From positions 3,596,001-3,660,000 of the forward strand of contig NZ_CP103289.1 of assembly GCF_024757985.1 (NCBI RefSeq): a stretch of 64,000 nucleotides of DNA, written 5' to 3'. Every line of letters begins with the position of its first letter. The first letter of the stretch is position 1. A program made the translations under genes and the position numbers. Shown here piece by piece: positions 20,354 through 41,188 of the stretch. Source of the stretch: Cellulomonas sp. NS3 (lineage in GTDB: Bacteria; Actinomycetota; Actinomycetes; Actinomycetales; Cellulomonadaceae). The notes below the pieces were generated by a model. The model was not told the origin of the DNA, did no database searches, and saw only the letters and a program-made list of their open reading frames with translations.

Positions 20354-20383
20354 CCCCGTGCGGGCGACGGCGCCCGCACGGGG
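20354..20383 (+). terminator. 13-bp perfect hairpin after the LuxR-type regulator
   Basis: CCCCGTGCGGGCG (20354-20366), loop ACGG, CGCCCGCACGGGG (20371-20383). It begins nine bases after the stop codon. It separates the regulator from the eCIS operon, which therefore needs its own promoter in 20384-20510. Confidence 0.85.
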
Positions 20384-20510
20384 CGGGCACCCGGTGCCCG
20401 GACGGCCGCACGCGTTGCCCGATCGGCTGCCCGGTGCCGGGTGCCGCGCGGCGCGGGCGGTCGGCACCGTGGAGCTGTCAGCGGCACGAGCGCACGAGGG
20501 GGGTGGACGG

Positions 20511-21227
20511 GTGATCGCCCAGGTCGACGCGGCCCTGCGCAGCATCGTGCGGACCGATGCCGTCGCGGGGACGGACCTCGAGGTCGTGTTCGACGCGCCG
20601 ACCAAGGACTGGGCGTCGCGCCGCAACACGCCCACGGTCAACCTGTACCTCTACGACCTGCGCGAGGACCTCAAGCGCCGCGAGCGCGGCTGGACCGAGC
20701 GGCGCGGGTCCGACGGCGTGGTCGTCTCGCGCAGCCCGGCGCCGCGGTTCTTCAAGCTCTCGTACCTCGTGACCGCGTGGACGCAGCGCCCCGAGGACGA
20801 GCACATGCTGCTCGACTCGCTGCTCGCGTGCTTCCTGCGCTACGAGGCGCTGCCGCGCGGTCTCGTCGTCGGCCACCTCGCCGAGACCGGGCTCGACGTC
20901 CCGGTGACGGTCGGGCTGCCACCGCCCGAGGACCGCGCGTTCGCCGACGTGTGGTCCGCGCTGGGCGGCGAGCTCAAGCCGTCCCTCGACGTCGTCGTGA
21001 GCGCGCCCGTCGACACCGGCATCGTGTACCCGGCCGGCCCGCCGGTGCTCGACGGCCCGTACGTCGGGCTGCAGGACCTCGGCGGCGGCTCGAACACCGG
21101 CCCGCGGCGGCGGCACGCACCGCCGCCCCGGGTCGCGGCGGCCCCGGCACCCGCGGTCACGACCGCCGCCGTCCCCGCGACGGCCCGCCCGGCCACCCGG
21201 TCCCGCAAGCGCGGCGCGCAGCCGTGA
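20511..21227 (+). CDS. DUF4255 / Pvc16-type tail terminator of the eCIS
   Basis: 238 residues from the GTG at 20511, which follows a GAGGGGGG ribosome site; the longer frame upstream lacks family similarity. The first ~180 residues are the Pvc16/Afp16 N-terminal domain (DUF4255): IAQVDAALRSIVRTDAV, DWASRRNTPTVNLYLYDLREDLKRR, FFKLSYLVTAWTQRPEDEHMLLDSLLACFLRYEALP. In Afp and PVC particles the homologue caps the tube and sheath and stops elongation. A Pro/Ala-rich basic tail (~200-238) is extra. The stop overlaps the next start as GTGA. Confidence 0.9.
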   Translation: MIAQVDAALRSIVRTDAVAGTDLEVVFDAPTKDWASRRNTPTVNLYLYDLREDLKRRERGWTERRGSDGVVVSRSPAPRFFKLSYLVTAWTQRPEDEHMLLDSLLACFLRYEALPRGLVVGHLAETGLDVPVTVGLPPPEDRAFADVWSALGGELKPSLDVVVSAPVDTGIVYPAGPPVLDGPYVGLQDLGGGSNTGPRRRHAPPPRVAAAPAPAVTTAAVPATARPATRSRKRGAQP

Positions 21228-23446
21228 GCGGGGACCCGGGCGTGGACGAGGGCACGGGGACGGACGAGGGCACGGGCGGGGGCAGGACCCCGGGCGAGGT
21301 CCCGGAGCCGGACGTGCGCGTCCGCGCGGACGGGACCAGGGACGGGGTCGGGCCCGGGCAGGCGAGCCTCGCGCACCTGCTCGGACGCGCCGCGACGGTC
21401 GAGGAACGGGTCCGCGCCCTCGTCGCCCGCCGCCGCGCGGTCGACCCGCAGCCCGACGACCCGTTCCGCGGGCTGTACCTGAGCGACGAGGCCGTCGACC
21501 GCCTGCTCGCGGGTCCCCGGCCCGCGCACGCGCCCGACCCGGCGGTCGACGAGCGGACCGACGCGGTCGAGCGCGCCGCCGACGACGCCGAGCGCGCCGG
21601 GCACCGGCTGCGGCTGCGCGAGCTCGTGCGCCGCTGCGCGCTGACGCCGCTCGACGTCGACCTCCTGCTCGTGGCGCTCGTGTGCGACCTCGACTCGCGG
21701 TTCGAGCAGCTCTTCGGGTACCTCAACGACGACGTCACGCGGCGCCGGCCCGCGACGGCGGTCGCGCTCGAGCTGTGCGGCGTCGACCTCGCCTCCGCGC
21801 ACGGCCGGGCCCGGCTCACGCACGGACCGCTCGTCACCGGGGGCCTGCTCGTGGTCGAGGACCCCGACCGGCCGTTCCCGGGCCGGGCGCTGCGGGTCCC
21901 CGACCGCGTCGTCGAGCACCTGCTCGGCGACGACGCACCCGACGCGGCGCTCGCGCCGGTGCTCGTCACCGCCCCGGACGTCCGGTGGGGGGACGCCGGC
22001 CCCCTCGCGCGCGCCCTCGGCCGCGGGACGACCCTGACCTACCTGCGCGAGGGCTCGACCGGCTCGGCGCGCGTCCTCGCCGTCCAGGCGCTGCGCTCGA
22101 CCGGCCGGGACGCCGTCGTCGTCGACCTGCACGCCCTCGCCGCCGAGCCGGACGCGCACGCGCTCGCCCGGTCCGCCGCGCGCGAGGCCCGGCTGCGCGG
22201 TGCCGGGCTCGTCGCCGGGCCGGTCGAGGCGGTGGCGGCCCGCCCGCGCCTGCTGCCGGCGTTGGCGTGCGACCCCGAGCCGCTGCTGCTCGTGGGCCGC
22301 GGCGCGTGGGACCCCGCGTGGACCCCGCAGCCGCCGCTCCTGCTGACGGTGCCGGCCAGCACCACGGGCGAGCGCTCGACGATGTGGCTGCGCGCGCTGG
22401 GCTCCGGCGCGGACGACGGGCGCCACGAGGCCGCCGCCGGCATGGACGACGCGACCGTCGAGGCGGCGACGCTGCAGTTCCGGCTGCGGCCCGAGCAGGT
22501 GGCGCGGGCCGCGGCGTCGGCGCTCGCACAGGCGCGCGTCGAGCCCGACGGGCAGGTCACCGCCGAGCACCTGCGGGCCGGGGCCCGCGCCGAGAACGGC
22601 TCCGCGCTCGACGGGCTGGCCCGGCGCATCGAGCCCGCGGTCGGCTGGTCGAACCTCGTGCTCCCGCGCGCGCCGATGGTCGCGCTGCGCGAGGTGGCCC
22701 TGCGCGCCCGGCACCGCGAGCGCGTGCTCGGCGACTGGTCGATGCGGCCCGGCGGCGGGCGCGGGCACGGTGTCGCGGCGCTGTTCGCGGGCGACTCGGG
22801 GACCGGCAAGACGATGTCCGCCGAGGTCGTCGCGCACGAGCTCGGGCTCGACCTGTACGTCGTCGACCTCGCGACGGTCGTCGACAAGTACATCGGGGAG
22901 ACCGAGAAGAACCTCGAGCGCATCTTCACCGCCGCCGCCGAGGTCAACGGGGTCCTCCTGTTCGACGAGGCCGACGCGATCTTCGGCCGGCGCTCGGAGG
23001 TCCGCGACTCGCACGACCGCTACGCCAACATCGAGAGCGCCTACCTGCTGCAGCGCATGGAGTCGTTCGACGGGCTCGCGATCCTCGCGACGAACCTGCG
23101 CGCCAACATCGACGAGGCGTTCACGCGCCGGCTCGACGTGCTCGTCGACTTCCCGCTGCCCGACCCCGAGCACCGCCGCGCGCTGTGGGACCGCAGCCTC
23201 GGGGCGCTCGTCCCGCGCGACCCGGACGTCGACCTCGAGTTCGTGGCGGGCGCGTTCGAGCTCGCGGGCGGCGCGATCCGCTCGTCGGCGGTCACCGCGG
23301 CGTACCTCGCGGCCGACGACGGCGGCACGGTGCGCATGACGCACGTGATCAGCGCCGTCGAGCACGAGTACCGCAAGCTCGGCCGGCTGTGCCTGCCCGG
23401 CGAGTTCGGGCGGTACTGGTCGATGCTCCAGCCGACCGGAGCCTGA
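21224..23446 (+). CDS. AAA+ ATPase of the eCIS (Pvc15/Afp15 type)
   Basis: 740 residues from the GTG at 21224, which overlaps the preceding stop (GTGA). The N-terminal ~400 residues contain an acidic Gly/Thr-rich leader and an alpha-helical domain, VRRCALTPLDVDLLLVALVCDLDSRFEQLFGYLNDD, typical of eCIS ATPases. The C-terminal AAA+ module carries Walker A GDSGTGKT at ~523-530, Walker B LLFDEADAIF at ~576-585 followed by GRRSEVRDSHDRYANIESAYLLQRME, and a sensor/arginine-finger segment ILATNLRANIDEAFTRRLD. Family members are thought to act in assembly or loading of the particle rather than contraction. Nothing suggests a membrane association. Confidence 0.92.
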   Translation: MSGDPGVDEGTGTDEGTGGGRTPGEVPEPDVRVRADGTRDGVGPGQASLAHLLGRAATVEERVRALVARRRAVDPQPDDPFRGLYLSDEAVDRLLAGPRPAHAPDPAVDERTDAVERAADDAERAGHRLRLRELVRRCALTPLDVDLLLVALVCDLDSRFEQLFGYLNDDVTRRRPATAVALELCGVDLASAHGRARLTHGPLVTGGLLVVEDPDRPFPGRALRVPDRVVEHLLGDDAPDAALAPVLVTAPDVRWGDAGPLARALGRGTTLTYLREGSTGSARVLAVQALRSTGRDAVVVDLHALAAEPDAHALARSAAREARLRGAGLVAGPVEAVAARPRLLPALACDPEPLLLVGRGAWDPAWTPQPPLLLTVPASTTGERSTMWLRALGSGADDGRHEAAAGMDDATVEAATLQFRLRPEQVARAAASALAQARVEPDGQVTAEHLRAGARAENGSALDGLARRIEPAVGWSNLVLPRAPMVALREVALRARHRERVLGDWSMRPGGGRGHGVAALFAGDSGTGKTMSAEVVAHELGLDLYVVDLATVVDKYIGETEKNLERIFTAAAEVNGVLLFDEADAIFGRRSEVRDSHDRYANIESAYLLQRMESFDGLAILATNLRANIDEAFTRRLDVLVDFPLPDPEHRRALWDRSLGALVPRDPDVDLEFVAGAFELAGGAIRSSAVTAAYLAADDGGTVRMTHVISAVEHEYRKLGRLCLPGEFGRYWSMLQPTGA

Positions 23447-24336: not shown

Positions 24337-24793
24337 CGCGTCGGGGCGGGCACCGGTCCTGCCCGGGGCGCGCGCCCAGGGCTCGAGCCGTTCACGGGGT
24401 GCCTGGGGACACGGTCGGCCTCAGCGCGGGCTCGCTCCTCGCGGCCGTCGTCGGCGCCGGCAGGTGGGCCGCACGGTCCACGTCGGACGTGCTGGCGCCG
24501 CTCGTCGAGGACCTCGGTGCACCCACCGGGGGCGGCCGGGCGGCCGTGCTCGTGGCTCGCGCTCGCTGTCGCCGCCTTCGCGGTGCTGTCGGTCGCGGGA
24601 CGCCGCGCCGGCTGACCTCACGCACGGCGGCACCGCCAGGCCGTGACCGCCCTGACCAGGCCGGACCCGGTGCTCGATCGGGCAGCGACGTCTTCCCTCC
24701 ACGACGGCCCGACGCACGTGCCGCTGCCCCCGCCGCGCGGTGACGCTGGTCTCGACGTCGCAGTGGCGCTCACCGGGCTCTGGAGGGACCAGC
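24337..24793 (+). other. 457-bp gap with a possible broken small membrane-protein gene
   Basis: No intact gene was found between the DUF4157 and sheath genes. A frame from the GTG at 24399 reads VPGDTVGLSAGSLLAAVVGAG and RWAARSTSDVLAPLVEDLGAP, then loses character near 24546. The frame one base over continues as a hydrophobic helix, WLALAVAAFAVLSVAGRRAG, ending in TGA at 24613-24615. Joined by a one-base shift, the two make a plausible ~70-residue tail-anchored protein. It could be a decayed gene, a sequencing error or chance. Confidence 0.35.
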
Positions 24794-26383
24794 ATGCCGA
24801 CCTACCTTTCCCCAGGTGTCTACGTCCAGGAGGTCGAGGCGGGATCCCGCCCGATCGAAGGAGTGGGCACCGCCGTCGCCGCGTTCGTCGGCCTCGCCGC
24901 GCAGGGTCCGCTCAACGAGCCGACCCTCGTGTCGAACTGGACCCAGTTCACCGAGAAGTTCGGCGACTTCCTGCCCGGCTCCTACCTCGCGCACTCCGTG
25001 TACGGGTACTTCCTCAACGGCGGCGGCAACTGCTACGTCGTGCGGATCGGCGGCGGCGCGTCGTCGAACGGCCACGCCGGGAACGGCGCGGCGGCGGTCG
25101 GGGCCGGGGGTTCCGCGAAGGCGCGCAAGGCCGTGACCGGGCCGGCCGTGGCGATGGTCGGCGGCTACCGCGTGACCGCGCAGCCGTCCGCGGCGAACAA
25201 GTCCGTGAGCGTCGAGATCCAGGACGCCGGCGGCGCCGAACCGCCCGAGGACCACTTCAAGCTCGTGGTCCACGCCGACGGCAAGGTGACCGAGACGTTC
25301 GACCACGTGACGACGAAGCGCGGTCCCGAGAACGTCGCCACCAAGGTCAACGCCGAGTCGAAGGTCGTGACGCTCGAGGAGGTCTTCTCGGGCAGCGCGC
25401 TCATGAAGCCCGACAAGGGCACGTTCGGCCTGCTCGCCCCCGAGCCCGAGCCGGAGGCGCCCACGGTGACCGCGCTCGGCGCCGACGACTACGTGGGCGA
25501 CGCCGCCGCGCGCACCGGGTTCAGCGGCCTCGAGGCGATCGACGAGGTCACGATGGTCGCCGTCCCGGACCTCATGGCCGCGTACGAGCAGGAGGCCATC
25601 GACCTCGAGACGGTCGTGGCGGTCCAGCGCGCGGTGATCGACCACTGCGAGCTCATGGGCGACCGCATGGCGATCCTCGACTCCCCCGCCAACCTCAGCC
25701 CGCAGCAGATCAAGAAGTGGCGCATGGAGGACACGAACTTCGACTCGCGCTTCGCGACGCTCTACTGGCCGTGGGTCAAGACGTTCGACCCCGCGTCGGG
25801 CAGCAACCGGTTCGTGCCGCCGTCGGGACACATGGCCGGGGTGTGGGCGCGCAACGACGACGAGCGGGGCGTGCACAAGGCGCCCGCGAACGAGGTCGTG
25901 CGCGGCGTGGTGAGCCTGCAGACGCAGATCACCAAGGCCGAGCAGGACCTGCTCAACCCGAACGGCATCAACTGCATCCGGACGTTCCCCGGGCGCGGGG
26001 TGCGGGTCTGGGGTGCGCGGACGCTGTCGAGCGACCCGTCGTGGCGCTACCTCAACGTGCGCCGGCTGTTCAACTACCTCGAGGAGTCGATCCTCATCGG
26101 CACGCAGTGGTGCGTGTTCGAGCCGAACGACCCGGCGCTGTGGGCACGCATCCGCCGCACCATCAGCGCCTTCCTGGTCAACGAGTGGCGCAAGGGCGCG
26201 CTGTTCGGGACGACGCCCGACGAGGCGTTCTTCGTCAAGTGCGACGGCGAGACCAACCCCGCCGAGGGCATCGACGCCGGCCAGGTCGTGTGCCAGATCG
26301 GCGTCGCCCCCGTGAAGCCCGCCGAGTTCGTCATCTTCCAGCTCGCCCAGTTCTCGGGCGGCACGAGCCTCGTCAACGAGTGA
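24794..26383 (+). CDS. Contractile tail sheath protein of the eCIS
   Basis: 529 residues; the ATG at 24794 has GGAGGG six bases upstream. The N-terminus MPTYLSPGVYVQEVEAGSRPIEGVGTAVAAFVGLA is the hallmark of phage and eCIS sheath proteins, whose N-terminal strand extends into neighbouring subunits. The C-terminal sheath domain follows (NGINCIRTFPGRGVRVWGARTLSSDPSWRYLNVRRLFNYLEESIL, ending in a short strand-forming tail FVIFQLAQFSGG). A surface domain sits between (~90-230). PVC and Afp clusters carry three sheath genes; only one is present here, as in simpler eCIS. Confidence 0.97.
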   Translation: MPTYLSPGVYVQEVEAGSRPIEGVGTAVAAFVGLAAQGPLNEPTLVSNWTQFTEKFGDFLPGSYLAHSVYGYFLNGGGNCYVVRIGGGASSNGHAGNGAAAVGAGGSAKARKAVTGPAVAMVGGYRVTAQPSAANKSVSVEIQDAGGAEPPEDHFKLVVHADGKVTETFDHVTTKRGPENVATKVNAESKVVTLEEVFSGSALMKPDKGTFGLLAPEPEPEAPTVTALGADDYVGDAAARTGFSGLEAIDEVTMVAVPDLMAAYEQEAIDLETVVAVQRAVIDHCELMGDRMAILDSPANLSPQQIKKWRMEDTNFDSRFATLYWPWVKTFDPASGSNRFVPPSGHMAGVWARNDDERGVHKAPANEVVRGVVSLQTQITKAEQDLLNPNGINCIRTFPGRGVRVWGARTLSSDPSWRYLNVRRLFNYLEESILIGTQWCVFEPNDPALWARIRRTISAFLVNEWRKGALFGTTPDEAFFVKCDGETNPAEGIDAGQVVCQIGVAPVKPAEFVIFQLAQFSGGTSLVNE

Positions 26384-26427: not shown

Positions 26428-26871
26428 ATGCCCCTCGACACATTCGACTCGTCGGCGGCGAACGGCTTCATCGTGACCATCGACGGGATCCAGATCCCCA
26501 AGGTCACCGAGGTCAGCGGCCTGAAGAACGAGGTCGACAAGATCGAGCTCAAGCAGCAGACGTCCGACGGCAAGTACGTCGTCCGCCAGCTCATCGGCCG
26601 CCCCAAGCCCGGGGAGTTCACCGTGACGCGCGGGCTCACCGAGTCCAAGACGGTGACGGACTGGCTCAAGAAGGTCATGGAGGGCGACGTCGCGGGGTCC
26701 CGCAAGACGGCGTCGGTCGCGCTGCTCGACTACCAGGGCGCGACCATCAAGACCTACAACTTCGTGAACTGCTGGGTGCGGTCGGTCGAGATCAACTCGC
26801 TCAAGGCCGGTGCCGCCGAGCAGGCCACCGAGAAGTTCACGGTCTGCTACGACGAGTCCACGATCTCCTGA
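26428..26871 (+). CDS. Inner tube protein 1 (gp19/Hcp-like)
   Basis: 147 residues; the ATG at 26428 is preceded by AGGAG. It is a T4 gp19-type tube protein: FDSSAANGFIVTIDGIQIPKVTEVSGLKNEVDKIELKQQTSDGKYVVRQLIGRPKPGEFTVTRG and, at the end, KAGAAEQATEKFTVCYDESTI. Hexameric rings stack to form the rigid tube inside the sheath. It lies 44 bases after the sheath gene, the usual order, and should be the bulk tube subunit; a second tube gene is at 30700. Confidence 0.95.
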   Translation: MPLDTFDSSAANGFIVTIDGIQIPKVTEVSGLKNEVDKIELKQQTSDGKYVVRQLIGRPKPGEFTVTRGLTESKTVTDWLKKVMEGDVAGSRKTASVALLDYQGATIKTYNFVNCWVRSVEINSLKAGAAEQATEKFTVCYDESTIS

Positions 26872-27352: not shown

Positions 27353-27519
27353 CGTACGCGCCCGACCGGATCCACGAGGAGGTCGCGTACGTCGCCTACC
27401 ACTTCCACTGGCCGCTCGACGCGATCCTCGACCTCGAGCACGGTCAGCGGCTGCGGTACGTCGCCGAGATCGCGAGCATCAACACGCGGCTCAGCACGCG
27501 TCCCCACGCGGAGCGCTGA
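27349..27519 (+). CDS. Small DUF6760-like eCIS protein
   Basis: 56 residues from the GTG at 27349. The sequence YAPDRIHEEVAYVAYHFHWPLDAILDLEHGQRLRYVAEIASIN is typical of the short DUF6760-like proteins that follow the tail-assembly gene in Actinobacterial eCIS operons and of phage GpE-like proteins. It is helical and cytoplasmic. In phages the equivalent pair of small ORFs is a chaperone for the tape-measure protein; the next gene here is a very large one, which agrees. Confidence 0.7.
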   Translation: MTYAPDRIHEEVAYVAYHFHWPLDAILDLEHGQRLRYVAEIASINTRLSTRPHAER

Positions 27520-27522
27520 GCC

Positions 27523-30684: not shown

Positions 30685-30699
30685 GAGAGGAGCACCCCG

Positions 30700-31155
30700 A
30701 TGCCCCAGGTCCAGCTCGTCCTGCCGGAGGAGCAGACGGCGGTCAGCGTGCACTTCGTCGTCACGATCGACGGTGCGCCGCTCGGCTCGTTCACGAGCTG
30801 CGAGGGCCTCGGCTGCGAGGTCGTCATGGAGACGCGTGAGGAGGGCGGCAACAACGGCCTCGTCTGGCAGCTCCCGACCCGGCTGAAGTACCCGAACATC
30901 AAGTTCTCCCGCCCGCTCGGCAAGCAGAGCGAGAAGGTCTCCGCGCTGTTCTCGCGCATGGCGTCGGGCTACACGCTCGCGACCGGCCACATCCAGGCGA
31001 TGACCGCGAAGGGGACGGTCGTCGCGGAGTGGGAGCTGCAGGGCGTCGTCCCGGTGCGCTGGACCGGCCCCTCGCTCAACGCCGACCAGCCGAAGGTCCT
31101 CACCGAGACCGTCGAGATCGCGCACCACGGCTTCCGACCCGGGAAGAAGGGCTGA
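30700..31155 (+). CDS. Inner tube initiator protein 2 (gp19-like)
   Basis: 151 residues from the ATG at 30700 with GAGAGGAG upstream. It is a gp19-family tube protein (VSVHFVVTIDGAPLGSFTSCEGLGCEVVMETREEGGNNGLVWQLPTRLKYPNIKFSRPLG). It differs from tube 1 and corresponds to the Pvc5/Afp5-type subunit that sits between baseplate and tube, next to the LysM protein gene that follows by five bases. It ends TETVEIAHHGFRPGKKG. Confidence 0.92.
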   Translation: MPQVQLVLPEEQTAVSVHFVVTIDGAPLGSFTSCEGLGCEVVMETREEGGNNGLVWQLPTRLKYPNIKFSRPLGKQSEKVSALFSRMASGYTLATGHIQAMTAKGTVVAEWELQGVVPVRWTGPSLNADQPKVLTETVEIAHHGFRPGKKG

Positions 31156-31159
31156 CCCG

Positions 31160-32038
31160 ATGGCCACCGCGACCTCCACCGGCGCACCCGGCGCCGTCGG
31201 CGCGCCGACCGCCCCGAAGCCCGGCAAGCTCGAGCACGCGTACCTGTCGATCTGCGAGCCCTCGACCGACGGCTCGCTGACGAAGGCCGGCCCGGAGCTG
31301 CACCGGCTCGACTTCCAGTTCAACCCCAAGGAGCTCGCGCTCACCAAGACGGCGTCGTGGGGGCGCGGGACGAGCCGCAACAGCAAGAAGAGCGGCCCGC
31401 CGCAGTACAACGGGCCGCAGCCGGGCAAGCTCACGCTCGAGATGTTCTTCGACGCGTCGGACACGCAGTCGAGCAGCGTCGTGAGCCGGGTCGAGCTGCT
31501 CTTCGAGTGCTGCGTCCCGACGAAGGCGTCGCACCAGCAGAAGAAGGGCTCCCCGCCGTTCGTGCTGTTCCGCTGGGGTCCGCTCACGAGCTTCCTCGCG
31601 TACCTGTCGAGCGTCGCGGCGAAGTACACGCTCTTCACCGCCGAGGGCATGCCGATCCGCGCGGTGTGCACCGTGACGCTCGAGGAGCTCGCGGGCGAGC
31701 CGCCGGGGCAGAACCCCACCTCGGGCGGCCTCGTACCGCGGCGCATGCACGTCGTGGTCGACGGGGACACGCTCGCGGGCGTCGCGTACCGGGAGTACGG
31801 GGACGCGGCGCTGTGGCGGGCGGTCGCGCAGGTCAACGAGATCGACGACCCGATGCGGCTACGCCCCGGGCGGCACCTGCTGCTGCCGTCGCTCGACGAG
31901 CTGCACGGCCCGCGTGGCGGGCTGCCGCCGGGTGCGTCGGTGGCGCGCACCGCCGGGGCGACCCGGCCCGCGGCCGCCGCCAGCGCGACGGGCATGTCCG
32001 GGACCGCAGGGAAGGAGCTCTCCGGTGCCGCACGGTGA
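31160..32038 (+). CDS. Baseplate tube-like/LysM protein (Pvc7/Afp7 type)
   Basis: 292 residues from the ATG at 31160. After a Pro/Ala leader, residues ~28-180 form a CIS-tube-type domain (LDFQFNPKELALTKTASWGRG; GKLTLEMFFDASDTQSS; FVLFRWGPLTSFLAYLSSVAAKYTLFTAEGMPIRAVCTVTLEEL). A LysM domain follows at ~193-240 (MHVVVDGDTLAGVAYREYGDAALWRAVAQVNEIDDPMRLRPGRHLLLP). This architecture joins the spike to the tube in PVC and Afp; the LysM part packs in the baseplate rather than binding peptidoglycan. The 3' end overlaps the VgrG-like start by 14 bases. Confidence 0.92.
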   Translation: MATATSTGAPGAVGAPTAPKPGKLEHAYLSICEPSTDGSLTKAGPELHRLDFQFNPKELALTKTASWGRGTSRNSKKSGPPQYNGPQPGKLTLEMFFDASDTQSSSVVSRVELLFECCVPTKASHQQKKGSPPFVLFRWGPLTSFLAYLSSVAAKYTLFTAEGMPIRAVCTVTLEELAGEPPGQNPTSGGLVPRRMHVVVDGDTLAGVAYREYGDAALWRAVAQVNEIDDPMRLRPGRHLLLPSLDELHGPRGGLPPGASVARTAGATRPAAAASATGMSGTAGKELSGAAR

Positions 32039-33815
32039 GGAGCACGCGACCACCCCGCTCGTCGAGGTCGAGGGCCGTCCGCTGCCCGACGACGTCGCGG
32101 CGCTGCTGGTGTCGGCGTTCGTCGACGACTCGACGATCGTGCCGGACCTTTTCGTGCTGCGGTTCAGCGACCCGGGCTCGGCCGTGCTGGCCAAGGCCGG
32201 CATCACGATCGGCGCGAAGGTGCGCGTCCTGATGCAGGCGAGCACGCCCGGCGGGCCGGTCCCGCTCGTGACCGGCGAGGTCACCGCGCTCGACCTCGAC
32301 GTGTCGCCGTCGGGCCAGCACACCGTGGTGCGCGGGCTCGACCTGTCGCACCGCCTGTTCCGGGGCCGCCGCGTCGAGGCCTACGTCAACGTCACGGCCT
32401 CGGACGTCGCCCGGACCGTCGCCCAGCGCGCGGGCATCGCCGTCGGCACGATCGACGGGCCCGGTGGCGTGCTCGAGCACGTCGCGCAGGACGGCATCGA
32501 CGACTGGACGTTCCTGCGCGGGCTCGCCGACCAGGTCGGCGCCGTCGTCGCGGTCGTGGACGGCAAGCTCAGCTTCACGCGCGCGACCCCCGCGTCGCGG
32601 GCCCCCGGGGGCTCGGCCGGCGCACGCCAGGACCCGCTCGTGCTCGAGCAGGGCGTCAACCTGGTGCACCTGCGCGCGACCGTCACGTCGGCCGGGCAGG
32701 TGCCCGACGTCGAGGTGCGCGGGTGGGACGTGGGCGCGAAGCGCGAGCTCGTCGCGGTCGCCCCGGCGAGGACCGCGAGCGCCGAGCTCGGGGACGTGAC
32801 GCCCGCGGCGCTGGCCTCGACGTTCGACAGCCCCCGGTTCGTCGTCGCCGCATCGACGTACGGCGAGCAGAAGCAGTGCGACCTCGCCGCGGCGGCGCTG
32901 TCCGACCACCTCGCGGGCGGCTTCGCCGAGCTCGACGGCGTCGCGCGGGGCAACCCCGCGCTGCGGGCGGGCACCGCGGTGCGGCTGGTCAACGTCGGTG
33001 CGCCGTTCGAGGGGCGGTACACGCTGAGCGCGACCCGGCACGAGTTCGCGCAGGACTCCGGGTACCTGACGTCGTTCACCGTCGGGAACACCTCGGAGCG
33101 CTCGCTGTACGGCGTCACGACCGGCGGGCTCGGCAGCGGCGGCGCGGGCGGTGCGCCGTTCCCCGGGGTCGTCACCGCGCAGGTCACCGACCTCAAGGAC
33201 CCCGAGGAGCGCGGGCGGGTCAAGGTCCGCTTCCCGGTGCTCTCGGACGCCTACGAGAGCTGGTGGGCGCGCACGGTCCAGCTCGGCGCCGGCGACGGCC
33301 GCGGCGCGGTGCTGCTGCCCGAGGTCGGCGACGAGGTGCTCGTCGCGTTCGGCCAGGGCAGCTTCCAGCAGCCCTACGTGCTCGGCGGGCTCTACAACGG
33401 CAAGGACAAGCCCGACAAGCCGTGGTCGGACCACGTCGGCGCGACCGACGGCGCCGTCCGCCGCCGGGCCCTCGTGAGCCGCACCGGGATGCTCGTCGAG
33501 CTCCTCGAGTCGCCCGACGGCGAGGAGCTCACGCTCAGCACCGACGGCGGCGCGCAGAAGATCACGCTCACCCAGAAGCCGCAGGCCGGTATCACGATCG
33601 TCTCGACCGGGTCGGTCTCGGTGGCGGCCGACAAGGACGTCGAGGTGAGCACCGGGGCGGGGAACGTCACCGTCAAGGGCGTCAAGGTCTCGCTCACCGC
33701 GACGGGGGCGCTCGAGCTGAAGGGCGCCACGGTCAAGGTCACGGCGGACGGGACCGCGGAGCTCTCGTCGAGCGGCGTCACGACCGTCAAGGGCTCGCTG
33801 GTCAAGATCAACTGA
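32025..33815 (+). CDS. VgrG/gpD-like central spike protein
   Basis: 596 residues from the GTG at 32025, which has AGGAG seven bases upstream inside the preceding gene. It contains the gpD-like part (VRGLDLSHRLFRGRRVEAYVNVTASDVARTVAQRAGI; WTFLRGLADQVGAVVAVVDGKLSF), the gp5-type OB domain near residue 385 (FPGVVTAQVTDLKDPEERGRVKVRFPVLSDAYESWWARTVQLGAGDGRGAVLLPEVGDEVLVAFGQG), and a repetitive C-terminal beta-prism (VSVAADKDVEVSTGAGNVTVKG). The trimer is the needle under the tube and should carry the PAAR tip from 17911-18228. No fused effector domain is present after the prism. Confidence 0.95.
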   Translation: MPHGEEHATTPLVEVEGRPLPDDVAALLVSAFVDDSTIVPDLFVLRFSDPGSAVLAKAGITIGAKVRVLMQASTPGGPVPLVTGEVTALDLDVSPSGQHTVVRGLDLSHRLFRGRRVEAYVNVTASDVARTVAQRAGIAVGTIDGPGGVLEHVAQDGIDDWTFLRGLADQVGAVVAVVDGKLSFTRATPASRAPGGSAGARQDPLVLEQGVNLVHLRATVTSAGQVPDVEVRGWDVGAKRELVAVAPARTASAELGDVTPAALASTFDSPRFVVAASTYGEQKQCDLAAAALSDHLAGGFAELDGVARGNPALRAGTAVRLVNVGAPFEGRYTLSATRHEFAQDSGYLTSFTVGNTSERSLYGVTTGGLGSGGAGGAPFPGVVTAQVTDLKDPEERGRVKVRFPVLSDAYESWWARTVQLGAGDGRGAVLLPEVGDEVLVAFGQGSFQQPYVLGGLYNGKDKPDKPWSDHVGATDGAVRRRALVSRTGMLVELLESPDGEELTLSTDGGAQKITLTQKPQAGITIVSTGSVSVAADKDVEVSTGAGNVTVKGVKVSLTATGALELKGATVKVTADGTAELSSSGVTTVKGSLVKIN

Positions 33816-33866
33816 CGGCGCCGCCGCCGGTCACCCGGCAGCGCGCCCGTGGAGGGGGACGAGGAC

Positions 33867-34274
33867 GTGGGGCAGGAGTTCGTCGGCGCCGGCTGGGCGT
33901 TCCCCGTGCGCACCGACCCGACCGGGCGCATCGCGCTCGTGACGCGCGAGCGCGAGATCGAGGAGAGCATCCGGCTGATCCTCGCGACGTCGCCGGGCGA
34001 GCGGCCGATGCGCCCCGAGTTCGGCTGCGCGGTGCACGAGTACGTCTTCGCCCCCGCGGACGCCGCGACCGCCGGGGACATCGCGTACGCGGTGCGGGTC
34101 GCGCTCGAGCACTGGGAGCCGCGCATCGACCTCAAGGACGTCGTCGTGCACTTCGACGGCGTCGACGACGGCGTGCTGTTCATCGAGGTCCTCTACGCGC
34201 TGCGCGGCACCAACGACCCGCGCAACCTCGTCTTCCCGTTCTATGTGATCCCCGAGCACGAAGGTGGTGCGTGA
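33867..34274 (+). CDS. Baseplate wedge protein gp25-like (Pvc9 type)
   Basis: 135 residues; the GTG at 33867 is preferred because GGAGGGGG lies eight bases upstream (an in-frame GTG at 33849 is possible). The gp25 family core is complete: TREREIEESIRLILATSPGERPMRPEFGCAVHEYVF and FIEVLYALRGTNDPRNLVFPFYVI. It joins sheath to baseplate and starts sheath assembly. The stop overlaps the next start (GTGA). Confidence 0.95.
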   Translation: MGQEFVGAGWAFPVRTDPTGRIALVTREREIEESIRLILATSPGERPMRPEFGCAVHEYVFAPADAATAGDIAYAVRVALEHWEPRIDLKDVVVHFDGVDDGVLFIEVLYALRGTNDPRNLVFPFYVIPEHEGGA

Positions 34275-36226
34275 GAGTGCTCCCCGCTCCCGACCTCGAC
34301 GACCGGCGCTTCCAGGACCTGGTCGACGACGCGAAGCGCCTGGTCCAGCAGCGCTGCCCCGAGTGGACCGACCACAACGTCTCCGACCCGGGCGTGACGC
34401 TCATCGAGGCGTTCGCGTTCATGGTCGACCAGCTCGTGTACCGGCTCAACCGCGTCCCGGACCGGCTCTACGTGACGTTCCTGGACCTGCTCGGCGTGCA
34501 GCTGCACCCGCCGACGGCCGCGACCGTGGACGTGACGTTCTGGCTGTCCGCACCGCAGCCCGAGCCGGTCGTCGTCCAGGCGGGGACGGCCGTCTCGACC
34601 CGGCGCACCGAGGACGACGAGGCGGTCGTGTTCTCGACCCGCACGCGCCTGACGGTCCCGCCGCGCCGGCTCGTGCACGTGCTCACGCAGGCGTCCGGCG
34701 CCGAGCCCGTGCGTCACGACGACGACCTCGCCTCGCACGTCGACTTCGCGGCGTTCGCCCCGACGCCGCAGGTCGACGACGTCGTGCTGCTCGGGCTCGA
34801 CGACGCGGCGCCCGGCTGCGCGGTCGTCGTGCGGCTCGACTGCGACGTGCGCGGCGTCGGCGTCGACCCGCGGCACCCGCCGCTCGTCTGGGAGGCGTGG
34901 GACGGCGCGGCGTGGCGGCGCTGCGAGGTCGACAGCGACGCGACCGGCGGCCTGAACCGGCGCGGCGACGTCGTGCTGCACGTGCCCGCGAGCCACACCG
35001 CGTCGGTCGTGCGCCAGCTGCGCGCGGGCTGGCTGCGCTGCCGGGTCGTGCCGCCCGTCGAGGGCTACCCGGCCTACGGGGCCTCGCCGACGATCGGAGC
35101 CGCGAGCGCGTTCACGATCGGCGGGACGGTCCCCGCGGTGCACGCCTCGACCGTGCTCGACGAGGTCCTCGGCCTCTCCGAGGGCGTGCCCGGGCAGGTG
35201 TTCACGCTCGAGCACCACCCCGTCGTCCCCGACGGGCGCCGGTTCGTCGTCGAGGTCGCGGACGGGTCCGGCTGGGCCGAGTGGACCGAGGTCGACTCGT
35301 TCGCCGGCTCCGGTCCCGAGGACCGCGTGGTGCGCGTGGACCGCGCGACGGGCGAGGTGCAGCTGCCCCCCGCGGTCCGCGAGGCCGACGGCACCCTGCA
35401 CGCGTACGGCGCCGTCCCGCCCAAGGGCGCCCCGCTGCGCGTGCCCGCGTACCGCACCGGCGGGGGGCCCGACGGCAACGTCGCCGCCCGCGTCATCGCG
35501 GTCCTGCGCACGCCCGTGCCGTTCGTCGACCGCGTCGAGAACCGCCGGGCCGCGCTCGGCGGGGTCGCCGGGGAGACCGTCGAGCAGGCCAAGGAGCGCG
35601 GTCCGCTGGCCCTGCGCACCCGCGACCGCGCGGTCACCGCGGAGGACTACGAGCAGCTCGCCCGCCGCGCCGCCCCCGGCATCGCCCGCGTGCGCTGCAT
35701 CCCCGCGACAGCCGGGCCCGACGCGCACGGGCTGCGCGTCCTCGTGGTGCCGTCCGCCGTGCCCGACGAGGCCGGGGTCCTGCGGTTCGAGGACCTCGTG
35801 CCGTCCGACGAGGGGCTCGCGGTCGTCGCCCAGCACCTCGACGAGCGGCGGCCGGTCGGCGCGCGCGTGCTCGTCGAGCCCCCGTACTACCAGGGCGTCA
35901 CGGTCGTGGCCCGGCTCACCGCCCGGCCGCGTGTCGCGACCGACGGCCTGCGCGCCGCTGCGCTCACGGCGCTGCACCGCTACCTCGACCCGCTGACCGG
36001 CGGGCCCGACGGCGTCGGCTGGCCGTTCGGGCGGCCCGTCCAGGCCGGCGAGGTCTACGCGGTGCTCCAGCGCCTGCCCGGCACCGAGATCGTCGACGAC
36101 GTCCAGCTCTTCGCCGCCGACCCGCTCACCGGCGAGCGCGGCGCGCCCGTGCAGCGCCTCGAGCTCGACCCGCACGCGCTCGTGTTCTCGTTCGAGCACC
36201 GCGTGCGCGTCGCGGCGGGGGTGTGA
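34271..36226 (+). CDS. Baseplate wedge protein J-like / gp6-like (Pvc11 type)
   Basis: 651 residues from the GTG at 34271 overlapping the gp25 stop. The N-terminus DDRRFQDLVDDAKRLVQQRCPEWTDHNVSDPGVTLIEAFAFMVDQLVYRLNRVPDRLYVTFLDLLGVQ is the signature of the eCIS gpJ/gp6-like wedge protein. The C-terminal baseplate-J core follows (LRTRDRAVTAEDYEQLARRAAPGIARVRCIP; GVTVVARLTARPRVATDGLRAAALTALHRYLDPLTGG). With the gpI-like protein it forms the wedge that opens on contraction. The frame extends far upstream through other genes, but only from 34271 does it match the family. Confidence 0.93.
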   Translation: MRVLPAPDLDDRRFQDLVDDAKRLVQQRCPEWTDHNVSDPGVTLIEAFAFMVDQLVYRLNRVPDRLYVTFLDLLGVQLHPPTAATVDVTFWLSAPQPEPVVVQAGTAVSTRRTEDDEAVVFSTRTRLTVPPRRLVHVLTQASGAEPVRHDDDLASHVDFAAFAPTPQVDDVVLLGLDDAAPGCAVVVRLDCDVRGVGVDPRHPPLVWEAWDGAAWRRCEVDSDATGGLNRRGDVVLHVPASHTASVVRQLRAGWLRCRVVPPVEGYPAYGASPTIGAASAFTIGGTVPAVHASTVLDEVLGLSEGVPGQVFTLEHHPVVPDGRRFVVEVADGSGWAEWTEVDSFAGSGPEDRVVRVDRATGEVQLPPAVREADGTLHAYGAVPPKGAPLRVPAYRTGGGPDGNVAARVIAVLRTPVPFVDRVENRRAALGGVAGETVEQAKERGPLALRTRDRAVTAEDYEQLARRAAPGIARVRCIPATAGPDAHGLRVLVVPSAVPDEAGVLRFEDLVPSDEGLAVVAQHLDERRPVGARVLVEPPYYQGVTVVARLTARPRVATDGLRAAALTALHRYLDPLTGGPDGVGWPFGRPVQAGEVYAVLQRLPGTEIVDDVQLFAADPLTGERGAPVQRLELDPHALVFSFEHRVRVAAGV

Positions 36227-36227
36227 C

Positions 36228-36815
36228 GTGCGCGGCACGGTGCCGGGGCTGACCAACCCGGTCGCGCTGGTCGACCGGCTCCCGGCGGTCTACCAGGACG
36301 AGGAGTTCGTGCGGCGCTTCGTCGGCGCGTTCGACGAGGTGCTCGCCCCGGTGCTGCTCACGATCGACCGCCTCGAGTGCTACGTCGACCCGCGCCTCGC
36401 GCCGCCCGACTTCCTGTCGTGGGTCGGCGAGTGGGTCGGCATCGAGCTCGACGACGCGTGGGGCCTCGCGCAGAGCCGCGAGATCGTCGCGGGCGCGGCC
36501 TCGCTGCACCGGCGCCGCGGCACGCGCCCCGGGATCGAGGACGCCGTGCGGCTCGCGCTGGGTCTCGGCCTGTCGGACGGCGCGGGTGCGCGCGGCGACG
36601 TCGAGGTCGTCGACTCGGGCGGCACGCGGTGGTCCGCGAGCCCCGGGACCGCGCTGCCGGGCACGCCCGAGCTCGCGCTGACCGTCCGCGTGCGGGTCCC
36701 GGACCCCGCCGCCGTCGACATCCGTCGCCTCGACCGGGTCGTCAGCGCGGTCAAGCCCGCGCACGTCCCCCACACCGTGGTCGTCGAGGCCTGCACCGAG
36801 GAGGAGCCGTGCTGA
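36228..36815 (+). CDS. Baseplate gpI-like protein (Pvc12 type)
   Basis: 195 residues from a GTG at 36228, one base after the J-like stop. The family core LVDRLPAVYQDEEFVRRFVGAFDEVLAPVLLTIDRLECYVDPRLAPPDFLSWVGEWVGIELDDAWGLAQSREIVAGAASLHRRRGTRPGIEDAVRLALG matches P2 gpI-like tail proteins of eCIS. In Afp and PVC the homologue completes the wedge and bears the fibre; no fibre gene follows. The stop is overlapped by the next gene by seven bases. Confidence 0.9.
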   Translation: MRGTVPGLTNPVALVDRLPAVYQDEEFVRRFVGAFDEVLAPVLLTIDRLECYVDPRLAPPDFLSWVGEWVGIELDDAWGLAQSREIVAGAASLHRRRGTRPGIEDAVRLALGLGLSDGAGARGDVEVVDSGGTRWSASPGTALPGTPELALTVRVRVPDPAAVDIRRLDRVVSAVKPAHVPHTVVVEACTEEEPC

Positions 36816-38083
36816 TCTGCACCACGTGCGGGACGCGCAACCAGGACGACGAGCACTTCTGCGCGGAGTGCGGCGCCTACCTGGCGTGGGAGGGCGAGCG
36901 CGTCGAGGAGACGCCCGCCGCCGACCCGGTCGTCGCACCCGTCACACCGGCGCCCGCCGCGACCGTCAGGGCGCCGTCGACCGGCCGGCCCGAGCCCGCC
37001 CGGGGCGCGACCTCCGCGACGGCCGTGCCGTCGTCGTCCGCGCCCCGGACGCCCGCAGCCGTGCCCGCGACCGGCGCGGCGCCCACGACCGCCGCGCCCA
37101 CGAGCGTGACCACCCCGCCGGTCACCACCCCGCCGGTCACCACCCCGCCGGTCACCACCCCGCCGGAGGCCGCACCCCCGGCGTCGACGACCCGGTCACG
37201 CGCCGAGGCGCTCCTCGCGCGCCCGGCCGACCCGCCGCCGGACCCGCGCCCCCGCAACGACGGCCCCGCACCCGTGCTGCCCGGCGCCCGCGCGCCCAAG
37301 CCCCGCGCCGCCCGCCCCGCACCGGCCGACGAGCCGCCGCCGGCGCCCGGCGACCAGGTCTGCGGGCAGTGCGGCGCGGGCAACGTCGCGTCGCGCAAGT
37401 TCTGCCGACGCTGCGGCGAGAGCCTCGTCGACGCGCCCGTCGTGCCGCGCCCGTCCTGGTGGACGCGCGTGACGACGCGCCGCCCGCGCGAGCTCGCCGC
37501 CGGCGCCCGGCCCCGGGTGCCCCGCCGGCCGTTCCGCGCCCGCTGGGTCGTGGTCCCCGCGGTCCTCGTGCTGCTCGTGGGCGGGCTGTGGTCGCAGCGC
37601 GAGCGGATCTCGGACGTCTACGACACCGTCGTCGACCGCGTCGTCGGCAACGGGCCCGTGAACCCCGCGGAGGTCGTCGCGTCGAGCGCGGCCGACGGGC
37701 GGGGCGCCGAGGCCGCGATGGACGGGGCGACGAACCAGTCGTGGACGCCCGCCCAGCCCGGCGAGGGCACCGGCGAGTTCCTCGAGATGCGGTTCGACGA
37801 GCCGTTCCGCCTCGCGTACGTCCGGATCTTCTCCGGGGCCTCGACGCAGCAGCCCGAGTTCCTCGCCGAGGGCCGCCCGCAGGAGGTCGCCCTCACGCTG
37901 CTCACGGCCGACGGCGCCCAGACCACCGAGCAGCTGCAGCTCGCGGACGCCGCGGGCGGCCAGGAGTTCCCGGTCGGCGTCGACGACGTGGTCGCCGCGC
38001 GGCTCACGGTGGTCTCGGCGTACCCGGTACCCGAGGGCGCGTCGGTGTCGCTGGGCGAGGTCGAGTTCCTGGGGAGGACCTGA
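36809..38083 (+). CDS. Zinc-ribbon, single-span membrane, discoidin-like eCIS protein
   Basis: 424 residues from a GTG at 36809 preceded by GAGGAGG inside the gpI-like gene. A first zinc ribbon (CTTCG...FCAECG, residues ~4-21) is followed by a Pro/Thr-rich linker with four VTTPP repeats. Next come a second zinc ribbon (CGQCG...FCRRCG, ~185-203), a basic stretch, one membrane helix (~245-262, VVVPAVLVLLVGGLW) and a C-terminal discoidin/NADase-type glycan-binding-like domain (AADGRGAEAAMDGATNQSWTP; LAYVRIFSGASTQQPEF). Zinc ribbons in the cytoplasm and a sugar-binding-like domain outside would make a trans-membrane bridge. It occupies the slot where tail fibres lie in other eCIS. The last 80 bases overlap the convergent SARP gene. 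Confidence 0.85.
   Translation: MLICTTCGTRNQDDEHFCAECGAYLAWEGERVEETPAADPVVAPVTPAPAATVRAPSTGRPEPARGATSATAVPSSSAPRTPAAVPATGAAPTTAAPTSVTTPPVTTPPVTTPPVTTPPEAAPPASTTRSRAEALLARPADPPPDPRPRNDGPAPVLPGARAPKPRAARPAPADEPPPAPGDQVCGQCGAGNVASRKFCRRCGESLVDAPVVPRPSWWTRVTTRRPRELAAGARPRVPRRPFRARWVVVPAVLVLLVGGLWSQRERISDVYDTVVDRVVGNGPVNPAEVVASSAADGRGAEAAMDGATNQSWTPAQPGEGTGEFLEMRFDEPFRLAYVRIFSGASTQQPEFLAEGRPQEVALTLLTADGAQTTEQLQLADAAGGQEFPVGVDDVVAARLTVVSAYPVPEGASVSLGEVEFLGRT
37106..37165 (+). repeat. Four 15-bp tandem repeats (GTCACCACCCCGCCG)
   Basis: Units at 37106, 37121, 37136 and 37151 are identical except one base in the first. They encode VTTPP four times in the linker between the zinc ribbons. Confidence 0.9.
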
Positions 38084-41000: not shown

Positions 41001-41147
41001 ACCGGGCGGGGCGACGACGAGGCCGAGCCGGGTCACGAGCACGCGGTCGAGCGCGGCGAGCAGGCGGGCGCGCCGCACCCCGGCCACCCGCGGCACCGAC
41101 CGTCGTGCCCGCGGGAGCGTCGTGCCCCCTGTGCCCACGTCCCCCAT
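38004..41147 (-). CDS. STAND (MalT-like) ATPase with C-terminal SARP/BTAD DNA-binding module
   Basis: 1047 residues from the ATG at 41147 (a GTG directly before it is possible). The N-terminal NTPase has Walker A APPGAGKTT (~46-54) and Walker B LVLVLDDLHT (~117-126), as in MalT-type regulators. A long helical, TPR-like middle of ~500 residues follows. The C-terminal ~270 residues hold an OmpR-type winged helix (RCFEEFRLLVSGVPVGLSRIRPRARSLLRLLALHTGRLTHREQLADTLWGELDPSAALHGLQVALSSLRTLLG) and a BTAD domain (AALDVYTGELMPEEGPAEWVVSAREQYR...YRDDAWRALIEASRLAGD). In AfsR the SARP part is N-terminal; here it is at the C-terminus. Its gene overlaps the last eCIS gene tail to tail, so it may regulate that cluster or the adjacent peptidase. 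Confidence 0.85.
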   Translation of the reverse strand: MGDVGTGGTTLPRARRSVPRVAGVRRARLLAALDRVLVTRLGLVVAPPGAGKTTLMAHWAHTVAADVAWLRVEREDVAPGRLVDRLSQALGEVLDLPSGASSSEELAVAIERRTAPLVLVLDDLHTIAGSPAEAVVERLLLLAPVHLHVLMGSRRRPGINLVRSELPTAVHVTGEDLAMRAPEVQQLFRDVYAVPLGADDAAALARRTAGWPAGLHLFHLATATLGATERRTAVAALAQRSRYAEDYLAHEVLQTLPGQLRRFLTRTSVLETLTAERCDALLGTPGTSRRLLTELERLTSTVTRDGDGVRFRCHEAVRRHLETQLQEQLGSTQATRWWQQAARVCEQDGAPAEALRLHALARDWDAVRRLLHVGGMPLVRSAAHGLGDLLPVWLQEDDPWASLVFASRLLEDGSLTTAAAVADRARTRLVEDPVGSAWAVRVAAAARTWLPGAGREPAPEDWVGLLREATRRAPQEAAGRAGPLDDEHRDLVRGLALVLAGNLVEARPLLEECVQRPHADVRTGLTARLALATLDALGGPGPLAGAALDRVVSLADRHGLGWWVRVAHGVAVALVPTPGVEAEKAVDALVEEADRRGDPWGAAVVASAAVAAQLRAARLPPAQLDRGLDELCTRWRALDAGVLEAWARSLHAVVAATGDLPNAEPAAESAEAFARAAGVPGALWVAYGALALSRPAERDELLELASASASASGFGPRPAGWEPALRVVLDPLPGTVTAPEPAGLPAAGLAVVRPGPEPAVTGPFEVRCFEEFRLLVSGVPVGLSRIRPRARSLLRLLALHTGRLTHREQLADTLWGELDPSAALHGLQVALSSLRTLLGSAGVTTAIVVRDGDAYGLVLPEGSSCDLHVFDGALAAAARARSGPGDGDRARRELRAALDVYTGELMPEEGPAEWVVSAREQYRVRAAEAAATLAALELARGDATAAASAATRGVEIDPYRDDAWRALIEASRLAGDHATAGRAQRRYDEVLAGLGLPPTADVPVPAVPGGPREPAAPDRAHVRSSPGTRPRPATPTRPRVPGTPRPP

Positions 41148-41188
41148 CACGCCCCCGGAAGGAGCGGGCCGACCGCGCCCGATCCTTC

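What the first reader, a model, noticed from the sequence alone, without database searches (positions are those of the whole stretch)
36809..38083. Two-zinc-ribbon trans-membrane protein with glycan-binding-like domain replaces the tail fibre
The gene after the gpI-like protein is normally a fibre that gives target specificity. Here it encodes two cytoplasmic zinc ribbons, a flexible linker, one membrane helix and an extracellular discoidin-like domain. Targeting could be built into the producer's own membrane instead of a fibre.
Basis: inference. Interest (0 to 1): 0.6.

Follow-up and report, generated by a model that had tools for sequence, protein, structure and literature searches.

The report
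Cellulomonas version of the CisA adaptor
The gene encodes the Cellulomonas counterpart of CisA, a known membrane protein that Streptomyces needs to fire its internal phage-tail-like injection machine; comparing relatives suggests that its two small zinc-binding knobs, not its outer sugar-binding-like part, are what dock the machine.

Summary
In detail: window 36809-38083 (+) encodes 424 aa with two zinc ribbons, a Pro/Ala-rich linker, one predicted membrane helix and a discoidin-type C-terminal domain, directly after the gpI-like gene of a contractile injection system (CIS). It is not new. It is an orthologue of CisA (SCO4242) of Streptomyces coelicolor, published in the same slot and layout as a producer-membrane adaptor needed for firing (PMC12237407); a carbohydrate-like C-terminal domain and one possible Zn-binding stretch are also in print (PMC10020575, PMC10066040).

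New here, from relatives. (1) Both ribbons are conserved in 45 of 47 distinct CisA genes, the S. coelicolor-type gene included; ribbon 1 ends C-x3-L-x-W in all 45. (2) In a second CIS lineage the same slot holds a ~150-aa protein with two ribbons, the same motif and a C-terminal membrane anchor but no outer domain (16 of 20 loci fetched in the window's family; strong matches in 10 of 345 genomes class-wide, all CIS_tube-positive). (3) Eight relatives read outside CIS clusters have one ribbon without that motif. So the ribbons are the likely CIS-docking part and the outer domain an optional sensor. No binding was tested.

The parts
36809..38083 (+). cisA orthologue, 424 aa
   Evidence: next gene after gpI as in the S. 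coelicolor-type locus L069
36818..36889 (+). zinc ribbon 1 (Cys 4, 7, 18, 21) ending in C-x3-L-x-W (Leu25, Trp27)
   Evidence: Pfam Zn_Ribbon_1/DZR; 4 Cys, Phe, Leu and Trp invariant in 45 aligned CisA; motif control
36890..37360 (+). low-complexity Pro/Ala/Thr-rich linker with an in-frame TTPPV repeat
   Evidence: inter-ribbon length differs widely between relatives (89-494 residues)
37361..37426 (+). zinc ribbon 2 (Cys 185, 188, 199, 202)
37427..37531 (+). basic juxtamembrane stretch with conserved WW and AG-x-RPR
37532..37588 (+). predicted single transmembrane helix (residues 242-260)
   Evidence: hydropathy mean 1.82; only segment at or above 1.5 in the protein
37661..38080 (+). predicted extracytoplasmic discoidin/F5-8C-type domain (NADase_transloc, NF047619)
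   Evidence: weak, low-confidence model match to CBM32/F5-8C folds
36228..36815 (+). gpI-like Tail_P2_I baseplate protein (Cis12 orthologue)
   Evidence: Pfam 1.7e-12; PDB 9gtp_E 6.8e-43
34274..36226 (+). baseplate J-like protein (Cis11 orthologue)
   Evidence: Pfam; PDB 9gtp_1K 1.2e-239
33849..34274 (+). gp25-like baseplate protein
   Evidence: Pfam 4.5e-25
31914..33815 (+). VgrG-like spike (Phage_base_V)
31160..32038 (+). CIS_tube / LysM protein
30700..31155 (+). tube protein (gp19)
26428..26871 (+). tube protein (gp19)
24740..26383 (+). sheath
20441..23446 (+). AAA ATPase with winged-helix domain (open frame; start not settled)
20358..21227 (+). Pvc16-like cap protein

Best explanation
This is the Cellulomonas orthologue of CisA: a single-pass membrane protein of the producing cell that lets an intracellular contractile injection system dock on, and fire at, the producer's own membrane. 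Most likely mechanism: the two zinc ribbons, spread along a flexible cytoplasmic tether, capture the baseplate (J/Cis11 and/or gpI/Cis12); the helix holds that contact at the membrane; the outer discoidin-type domain senses or binds an envelope glycan or clusters the protein, and gates docking. Shown here: gene, domains, position, conservation, orthology, and a short form without the outer domain in another lineage. Shown by others for S. coelicolor: membrane location, topology (reporter in E. coli), requirement for contraction and cell death. Inferred: that the ribbons are the docking part, that the outer domain is a sensor, and that the Cellulomonas system works inside its producer.
For: Position and layout: directly after gp25-J-gpI. 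J and gpI match the S. coelicolor CIS structure 9GTP at 1.2e-239 and 6.8e-43. Locus L069, whose gpI is 100% identical to 9GTP chain E over the 178 residues compared, carries next a 468-aa protein, the length published for CisA, with two ribbons, a helix and the same NF047619 domain (79.8 bits). In the baseplate-J tree of 95 rows the window lies inside the main CisA group. Two ribbons by pattern in 45 of 47 distinct CisA genes; the 25 of these loci that were picked by gpI alone all encode CisA. The short form shows that ribbons + anchor persist without the outer domain. C-x3-L-x-W after ribbon 1: 45 of 45 CisA and 16 of 16 short forms, against 0 of 30 Cys-knuckle pairs in 41 non-CIS loci. Co-occurrence: 10 of 10 genomes with a strong short-form match, and 9 of 9 genomes outside the CisA model with a strong CisA match, are CIS_tube-positive, in a sample with 50 of 345 positive. 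CisA requirement for firing: PMC12237407, sections 5, 7 and 9.
Against: No binding or localisation data exist for this organism in what I saw. The published in-silico screen named Cis11 as partner of the 'largely unstructured' cytosolic part, not the ribbons in particular. Zinc ribbons are common, so the link between CisA and the short form rests on the slot, the L-x-W motif and the anchor. A CisA C-terminal profile sees short forms only weakly, in 3 of 20 loci (E 7e-5 to 9e-4). The short form has no positive charge bias before its helix (1.3 K+R). In 11 of 16 short-form loci a converging long gene (about 2,000 aa, smaller at a contig edge) could encode a fibre (domains read only for L152). 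Eleven of 50 CIS_tube-positive genomes show neither form and 9 more only weaker or partial CisA matches. The label CisA is not one clean group on the J tree: it needs 4 changes.
Confidence: 0.8

Rival explanations
1. It is a conventional receptor-binding fibre subunit that stays on the released particle and uses the discoidin domain to bind glycans on other cells; the hydrophobic stretch is buried in the particle.
For: It sits in the fibre slot. SCO4242 was found in purified particles and called a putative fibre in 2023 (PMC10020575, passages); CisA peptides were also seen in crude preparations from nisin-stressed cells (PMC12237407, section 9). The C-terminal domain matches glycan-binding families.
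Against: CisA has no density in the particle, fractionates with membranes and is bitopic (PMC12237407, section 7 and a passage of section 6). The short form has no such domain. Pfam finds no fibre domain in the window protein.
Confidence: 0.07
2. It is a general envelope protein of actinobacteria (ribbon + helix + discoidin domain) that merely neighbours the CIS and does another job.
For: Eight of 14 loci read with the same domain and no CIS genes in the fetched stretch encode one ribbon + helix + domain; 44 of 394 sampled genomes have a match above the PF25302 cut-off.
Against: The two-ribbon form was met only next to CIS genes in the loci read. CisA deletion abolishes CIS contraction in S. 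coelicolor. The 21 strong CisA matches are in 20 CIS_tube-positive genomes and one (G348) that has J and gpI; 12 of the 21 had rows in the model.
Confidence: 0.06
3. The outer discoidin domain, not the ribbons, carries the essential CIS function (for example oligomerisation that gates firing); the ribbons are structural or redox elements.
For: The paper predicts a pentamer through the C-terminal domain (section 7); the domain is well conserved.
Against: A whole CIS lineage keeps ribbons and anchor without it.
Confidence: 0.2

Closest known systems
CisA (SCO4242), S. coelicolor CIS, PMC12237407
   Same: Gene slot, flexible N-terminus, one helix, conserved C-terminal domain; J and gpI partners orthologous; two ribbons and NF047619 also in the S. 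coelicolor-type gene L069.
   Different: About 32% identical to L069 over ribbon 2 to the C-terminus; from a Cellulomonas-like, non-Streptomyces host. The word zinc does not occur in the main text of that paper; PMC10020575 reported one possible Zn-binding stretch before the helix (passage).
Short two-ribbon tail-anchored protein in a second actinobacterial CIS lineage (described here)
   Same: Slot after gpI, two ribbons, C-x3-L-x-W, predicted membrane anchor.
   Different: About 145-151 aa counted from 8 residues before ribbon 1, ribbons 39-40 residues apart, no outer domain; its J sequences form their own supported group.
NADase_transloc / NF047619 domain, PDB 7ji1
   Same: The window's outer domain scores above both curated cut-offs; a CisA profile finds 7ji1 at 5.3e-13.
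   Different: 7ji1 is listed as an ADP-ribosyl cyclase / cyclic ADP-ribose hydrolase chain of 159 residues, not a membrane adaptor.
Thylakoid-anchored CIS of cyanobacteria
   Same: Docks on the producer's own membrane (PMC12237407 discussion).
   Different: Anchored by a baseplate extension; in the one cyanobacterial plasmid locus read here (L168) gpI and the next gene have no ribbon pattern.

Membership tests
CisA membrane adaptors | Encoded directly downstream of the baseplate genes of a type IId-like CIS | tested here: met
   J groups with the S. coelicolor-type J; the label IId itself was not tested
CisA membrane adaptors | Flexible N-terminus, single helix, conserved C-terminal domain | tested here: met
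   (flexibility judged from composition only)
CisA membrane adaptors | Cytoplasmic N-terminus and extracytoplasmic C-terminus | tested here: inconclusive
   only charge bias and homology
CisA membrane adaptors | Orthologous Cis11 and Cis12 partners present | tested here: met
CisA membrane adaptors | Required for CIS contraction and stress-induced death | not testable with these tools
   shown for S. coelicolor only
CisA membrane adaptors | C-terminal domain can form a pentamer (published prediction) | not tested
NADase-type glycan-binding (discoidin) domain proteins | Score above the curated NF047619 / PF25302 cut-offs | tested here: met
   73.6 vs 38 and 30.2 vs 27 bits
NADase-type glycan-binding (discoidin) domain proteins | Binds a glycan | not testable with these tools
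   no ligand data
Conventional CIS tail fibres | Fibre or receptor-binding domain, no membrane helix | tested here: not met
   no fibre domain in Pfam, one predicted membrane helix

The most novel reading that the evidence does not exclude
A two-zinc-ribbon docking module marked by C-x3-L-x-W is the general 'fibre replacement' of actinobacterial self-targeting CIS: it is tied to the producer's own membrane and comes in a long form with an outer sensor (CisA) and a minimal tail-anchored form without one. Deinococcus reached the same end by another route: its gpI carries an FHA domain and the next gene is an FHA-bearing Ser/Thr kinase with a predicted membrane helix, so docking there could be switched by phosphorylation.
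Probability: 0.42. Interest if true: 0.7.

Novelty: new member of a known kind. Interest (0 to 1): 0.42.

Why it matters
How a free-floating injection machine finds its producer's membrane is an open question in the CisA papers: the Cis11 contact is a prediction, and part of the type IId systems has no recognised cisA (75 of 120 genomes had a reciprocal hit). The comparison names small, testable parts (two ribbons and one Leu/Trp motif) and gives a natural minimal version of about 150 aa without the outer domain, which may be easier to handle than CisA, whose expression is reported to be toxic in E. coli. It could also help explain why some CIS-positive genomes look cisA-negative.

Tried and rejected
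Conventional fibre: rejected as the main reading (no fibre domain, membrane helix, published topology). Chance or mis-called frame: rejected (conserved across many loci). 'Ribbon + discoidin is unique to CIS': not so, because one-ribbon relatives occur away from CIS genes.

A scan of a public genome collection with the whole protein gave one true relative, C. cellasea (L008), and one low-complexity linker match (L009, set aside). A structure model of the outer domain from two sequences was poor (mean pLDDT 55.6); many of its top Foldseek hits are CBM32/F5-8C-type folds, others are not, and none reaches E 0.001, so it is only weak support. The Deinococcus loci and the one cyanobacterial locus checked have no ribbon pattern after gpI (gpI and next gene of L164, L165, L168), so the module is not universal. 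Of 60 plasmid records matched by J I read ten. A genome-wide count of the L-x-W motif was not possible; the control was limited to fetched non-CIS loci.

Rows set aside: L113 (same contig as L008) in the CisA counts. L082 (second ribbon lacks its last Cys by pattern, and ribbon 1 is followed by V-x-W) and L087 (ribbon 1 lies in another frame than the rest) count as misses of the two-ribbon pattern. At the search cut-off of 1e-5 the CisA profile matched 49 of 345 genomes: 21 strong (E <= 1e-30), 9 weaker or partial (8e-10 to 1.7e-19, all CIS_tube-positive) and 19 weak or fragmentary (3.5e-9 to 9e-6, none CIS_tube-positive); the 1e-30 line was chosen after seeing the list. Twelve of the 21 had a sequence in the model, so only 9 are independent. 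Two weak partial short-form matches (G220, G391) were set aside. In the family, 26 of 101 genomes are CIS_tube-positive; the 20 further loci come from 18 of the 19 that lack a PF25302 match; G026 (fragmented, two places) and a second weak place in G078 were not fetched. The J tree used the quick method, several rows have long branches, and I set the labels by hand (L148, L160 and L196-L198 counted as CisA; L199-L201 as none). The counts for E <= 1e-9 were replaced by those.

Full report
WHAT IS THERE. Window 36809-38083 (+) encodes a 424-aa protein that starts inside the stop region of the gpI-like gene. It has zinc ribbon 1 (Cys 4/7/18/21), a linker rich in Pro, Ala, Ser and Thr, zinc ribbon 2 (Cys 185/188/199/202), a basic stretch, one hydrophobic helix (242-260) and a C-terminal domain of about 140 aa. 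The domain is above the curated cut-offs of Pfam PF25302 (30.2 vs 27 bits) and NCBIfam NF047619, 'NADase-type glycan-binding domain' (73.6 vs 38). A profile of 47 relatives finds PDB 7ji1 at 5.3e-13 and, more weakly, F5/8C-type and carbohydrate-enzyme modules. So 'discoidin-like, glycan-binding-like' is a fair description; binding itself is not shown.

SURROUNDINGS. The gene closes a CIS cluster: LuxR-type regulator, Pvc16-like cap, AAA ATPase, eCIS_core protein, sheath, two gp19-type tube proteins, CIS_tube/LysM, VgrG, gp25, J and gpI. A BTAD-type regulator converges on it from the other strand. J and gpI match the solved S. coelicolor CIS (9GTP) at 1.2e-239 and 6.8e-43; 9GTP is a structure of the CisA paper. 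The closest named relative found is Cellulomonas cellasea, best segment 73% identical; the window's own genome (4.78 Mb, unnamed) has one PF25302 match, this gene.

IT IS CISA. I looked for the S. coelicolor gene through its neighbour. The next gene there (L069) is 468 aa, the length used for CisA in PMC12237407 (section 7), with the same layout, two ribbons and the same NF047619 domain. Identity to the window from ribbon 2 onwards is about 32%. That paper (outline and abstract, sections 5, 7, 9 and 27, and passages) shows CisA in the fibre slot, with a cytoplasmic N-terminus and an extracytoplasmic C-terminus, needed for contraction and cell death, without density in the particle, and predicted to touch Cis11; 75 of 120 genomes had a reciprocal hit. 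PMC10066040 (passages) called it a helix plus sugar-binding domain. PMC10020575 (passages) added a Cys-rich, possibly Zn-binding stretch before the helix that might attach to the baseplate.

CONSERVATION. Among 47 distinct CisA genes from CIS loci (48 rows, L113 being the same contig as L008), 45 have two ribbons by pattern. The two misses are L082, whose second ribbon lacks its last Cys, and L087, whose first ribbon lies in another frame. In 46 of the 47 the gene is on the same strand downstream of gpI; in L094 it is on the other strand about 2 kb away. Twenty-five of these loci (L069-L093) were chosen by gpI alone, across 40-100% identity, and 25 of 25 encode CisA; I picked them by hand, mostly from long contigs, out of 151 positive genomes. 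The others were chosen through a PF25302 match or, for L008, a protein match. Over 45 aligned rows, the four Cys, a Phe, a Leu and a Trp of ribbon 1 are invariant. One hydrophobic segment is found in 46 of 47, two in L101.

A SHORT FORM. In the window's own family 26 of 101 genomes are CIS_tube-positive but only 7 of 101 match PF25302. I fetched 20 further loci from 18 of the other 19. In 16 of 20 the protein after gpI, same strand, has two ribbons 39-40 residues apart, a Pro-rich stretch and a C-terminal helix with 0-3 residues after it, and no outer domain. Counted from 8 residues before ribbon 1 it is 145-151 aa; start sites were not settled, and in L153-L155 ribbon 1 begins about 300 bases after gpI. 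The other four: L160 begins a normal CisA at a contig end; L148 has a one-ribbon relative, with the L-x-W motif, about 4 kb on; L144 and L151 have neither. Ribbon 1 is followed by C-x3-L-x-W (Met for Leu in some short forms) in 16 of 16 short forms and in 45 of 45 CisA, ribbon 2 in 0 of 61; in 41 loci without CIS genes 0 of 30 Cys-knuckle pairs have it. Each of the 30 gpI loci that one search returned (of 151 positive genomes) shows such a ribbon on one strand; five lie in genomes already used. The J tree puts all 20 short-form loci tested (16 here, 4 from other families) on one side of a fully supported branch, and the window in the main CisA group; the root is at the midpoint, so 'clade' is not proven.

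HOW OFTEN. In 345 genomes sampled across the class, CIS_tube was found in 50. Strong short-form matches (E <= 1e-30): 10 genomes, all outside the family used for the model and all CIS_tube-positive (Fisher 1.8e-9). Strong CisA matches: 21 genomes; 20 CIS_tube-positive, the other (G348) with J and gpI. Twelve of the 21 had rows in the model, so the independent figure is 9 of 9 (1.7e-9). No genome has strong matches to both. Eleven of 50 CIS_tube-positive genomes have neither and 9 more only weaker or partial CisA matches; of the three f25 loci read among these (L199-L201), my own profile found a distant match in one, about 4 kb past gpI, and none in two, so I do not count them as CisA.

OUTSIDE CIS. 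Of 14 loci with the C-terminal domain and no CIS genes in the 6-9 kb fetched, 8 encode one ribbon + helix + domain, without the motif (domain placed by the coordinates). Four of the 8 are in genomes with a CIS_tube match elsewhere (G159, G256, G274, G276), three of these with the short form, so a role in trans cannot be ruled out. The layout 'ribbon, helix, discoidin domain' is thus wider than CIS clusters, and the second ribbon plus L-x-W is what marks the CIS form.

MECHANISM. The part that stays when the outer domain is lost is ribbons + membrane anchor. I therefore think the ribbons hold the baseplate and the outer domain gates or senses (inference). A point against 'fibre replaced' in the short-form lineage: 11 of 16 loci carry a converging long gene, in L152 a 2,148-aa protein with repeated carboxypeptidase-regulatory-like and Ig-like domains, and a 2026 catalogue reports fibre candidates in Actinobacteriota, with a Cellulomonas among its examples (PMC12923769, passages).

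ANOTHER ROUTE. Five of six Deinococcus plasmid records matched by J were read. In three, gpI carries an N-terminal FHA domain and the next gene is an FHA-bearing Ser/Thr kinase. D. grandis also has the kinase; its gpI as annotated is short and was not searched for FHA. D. psychrotolerans has a kinase by annotation, in another gene order. A single helix near residue 695 was found in the two kinases checked. A phospho-switched docking is a guess. [quoted passage not shown]

NOVELTY. The window gene is a new member of a known kind. For the short form and the FHA/kinase pair I found nothing in print in the open library searched (one search listed one T6SS review, seen as a listing only); most subscription papers and preprints were not covered.

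Noticed in passing
L164:9082-14957, L216:9061-14897, L217:9124-14897; also L165:10197-15005: Deinococcus plasmid CIS: gpI with an N-terminal FHA domain followed by an FHA-bearing Ser/Thr kinase of about 1,600 aa (FHA-gpI in 3 of 5 records read; kinase by Pfam in 4 of 5 and by annotation in the fifth; one helix in the two kinases checked).
   Followed up: partly
L152:6436-12879 (-), and long converging genes in 11 of 16 short-form loci (within L145-L163): A gene of about 2,000 aa converges on the short two-ribbon gene; in L152 it has 10 carboxypeptidase-regulatory-like and 3 Ig-like stretches; possible fibre or surface protein.
   Followed up: partly
L198:3998-4876 (-): A compact CisA of 290 aa with short ribbon spacing, helix and outer domain, in a divergent CIS (family f18), intermediate between the long and short forms.
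   Followed up: no
L148:10091-11650 (+): A 519-aa one-ribbon relative with the L-x-W motif and a helix, about 4 kb past gpI in a genome that also has a short-form CIS (L147, same genome G020).
   Followed up: no
L094:5065-6258 (+): cisA on the opposite strand, about 2 kb from gpI: the gene can leave the operon and be kept.
   Followed up: no
window 27352-30700: Stretch of very high GC (82% at 28001-30000) between the two tube genes with long frames on both strands; none of the frames tested matches Pfam.
   Followed up: no
window 19722-20345 (+) and 38004-41150 (-): LuxR-type regulator ahead of the CIS cluster and a BTAD-type regulator converging on cisA; GerE and BTAD regulators near eCIS are reported in PMC8213781 (passages).
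   Followed up: no
window 37106-37168: In-frame tandem repeat coding TTPPV in the CisA linker, a low-complexity stretch.
   Followed up: no
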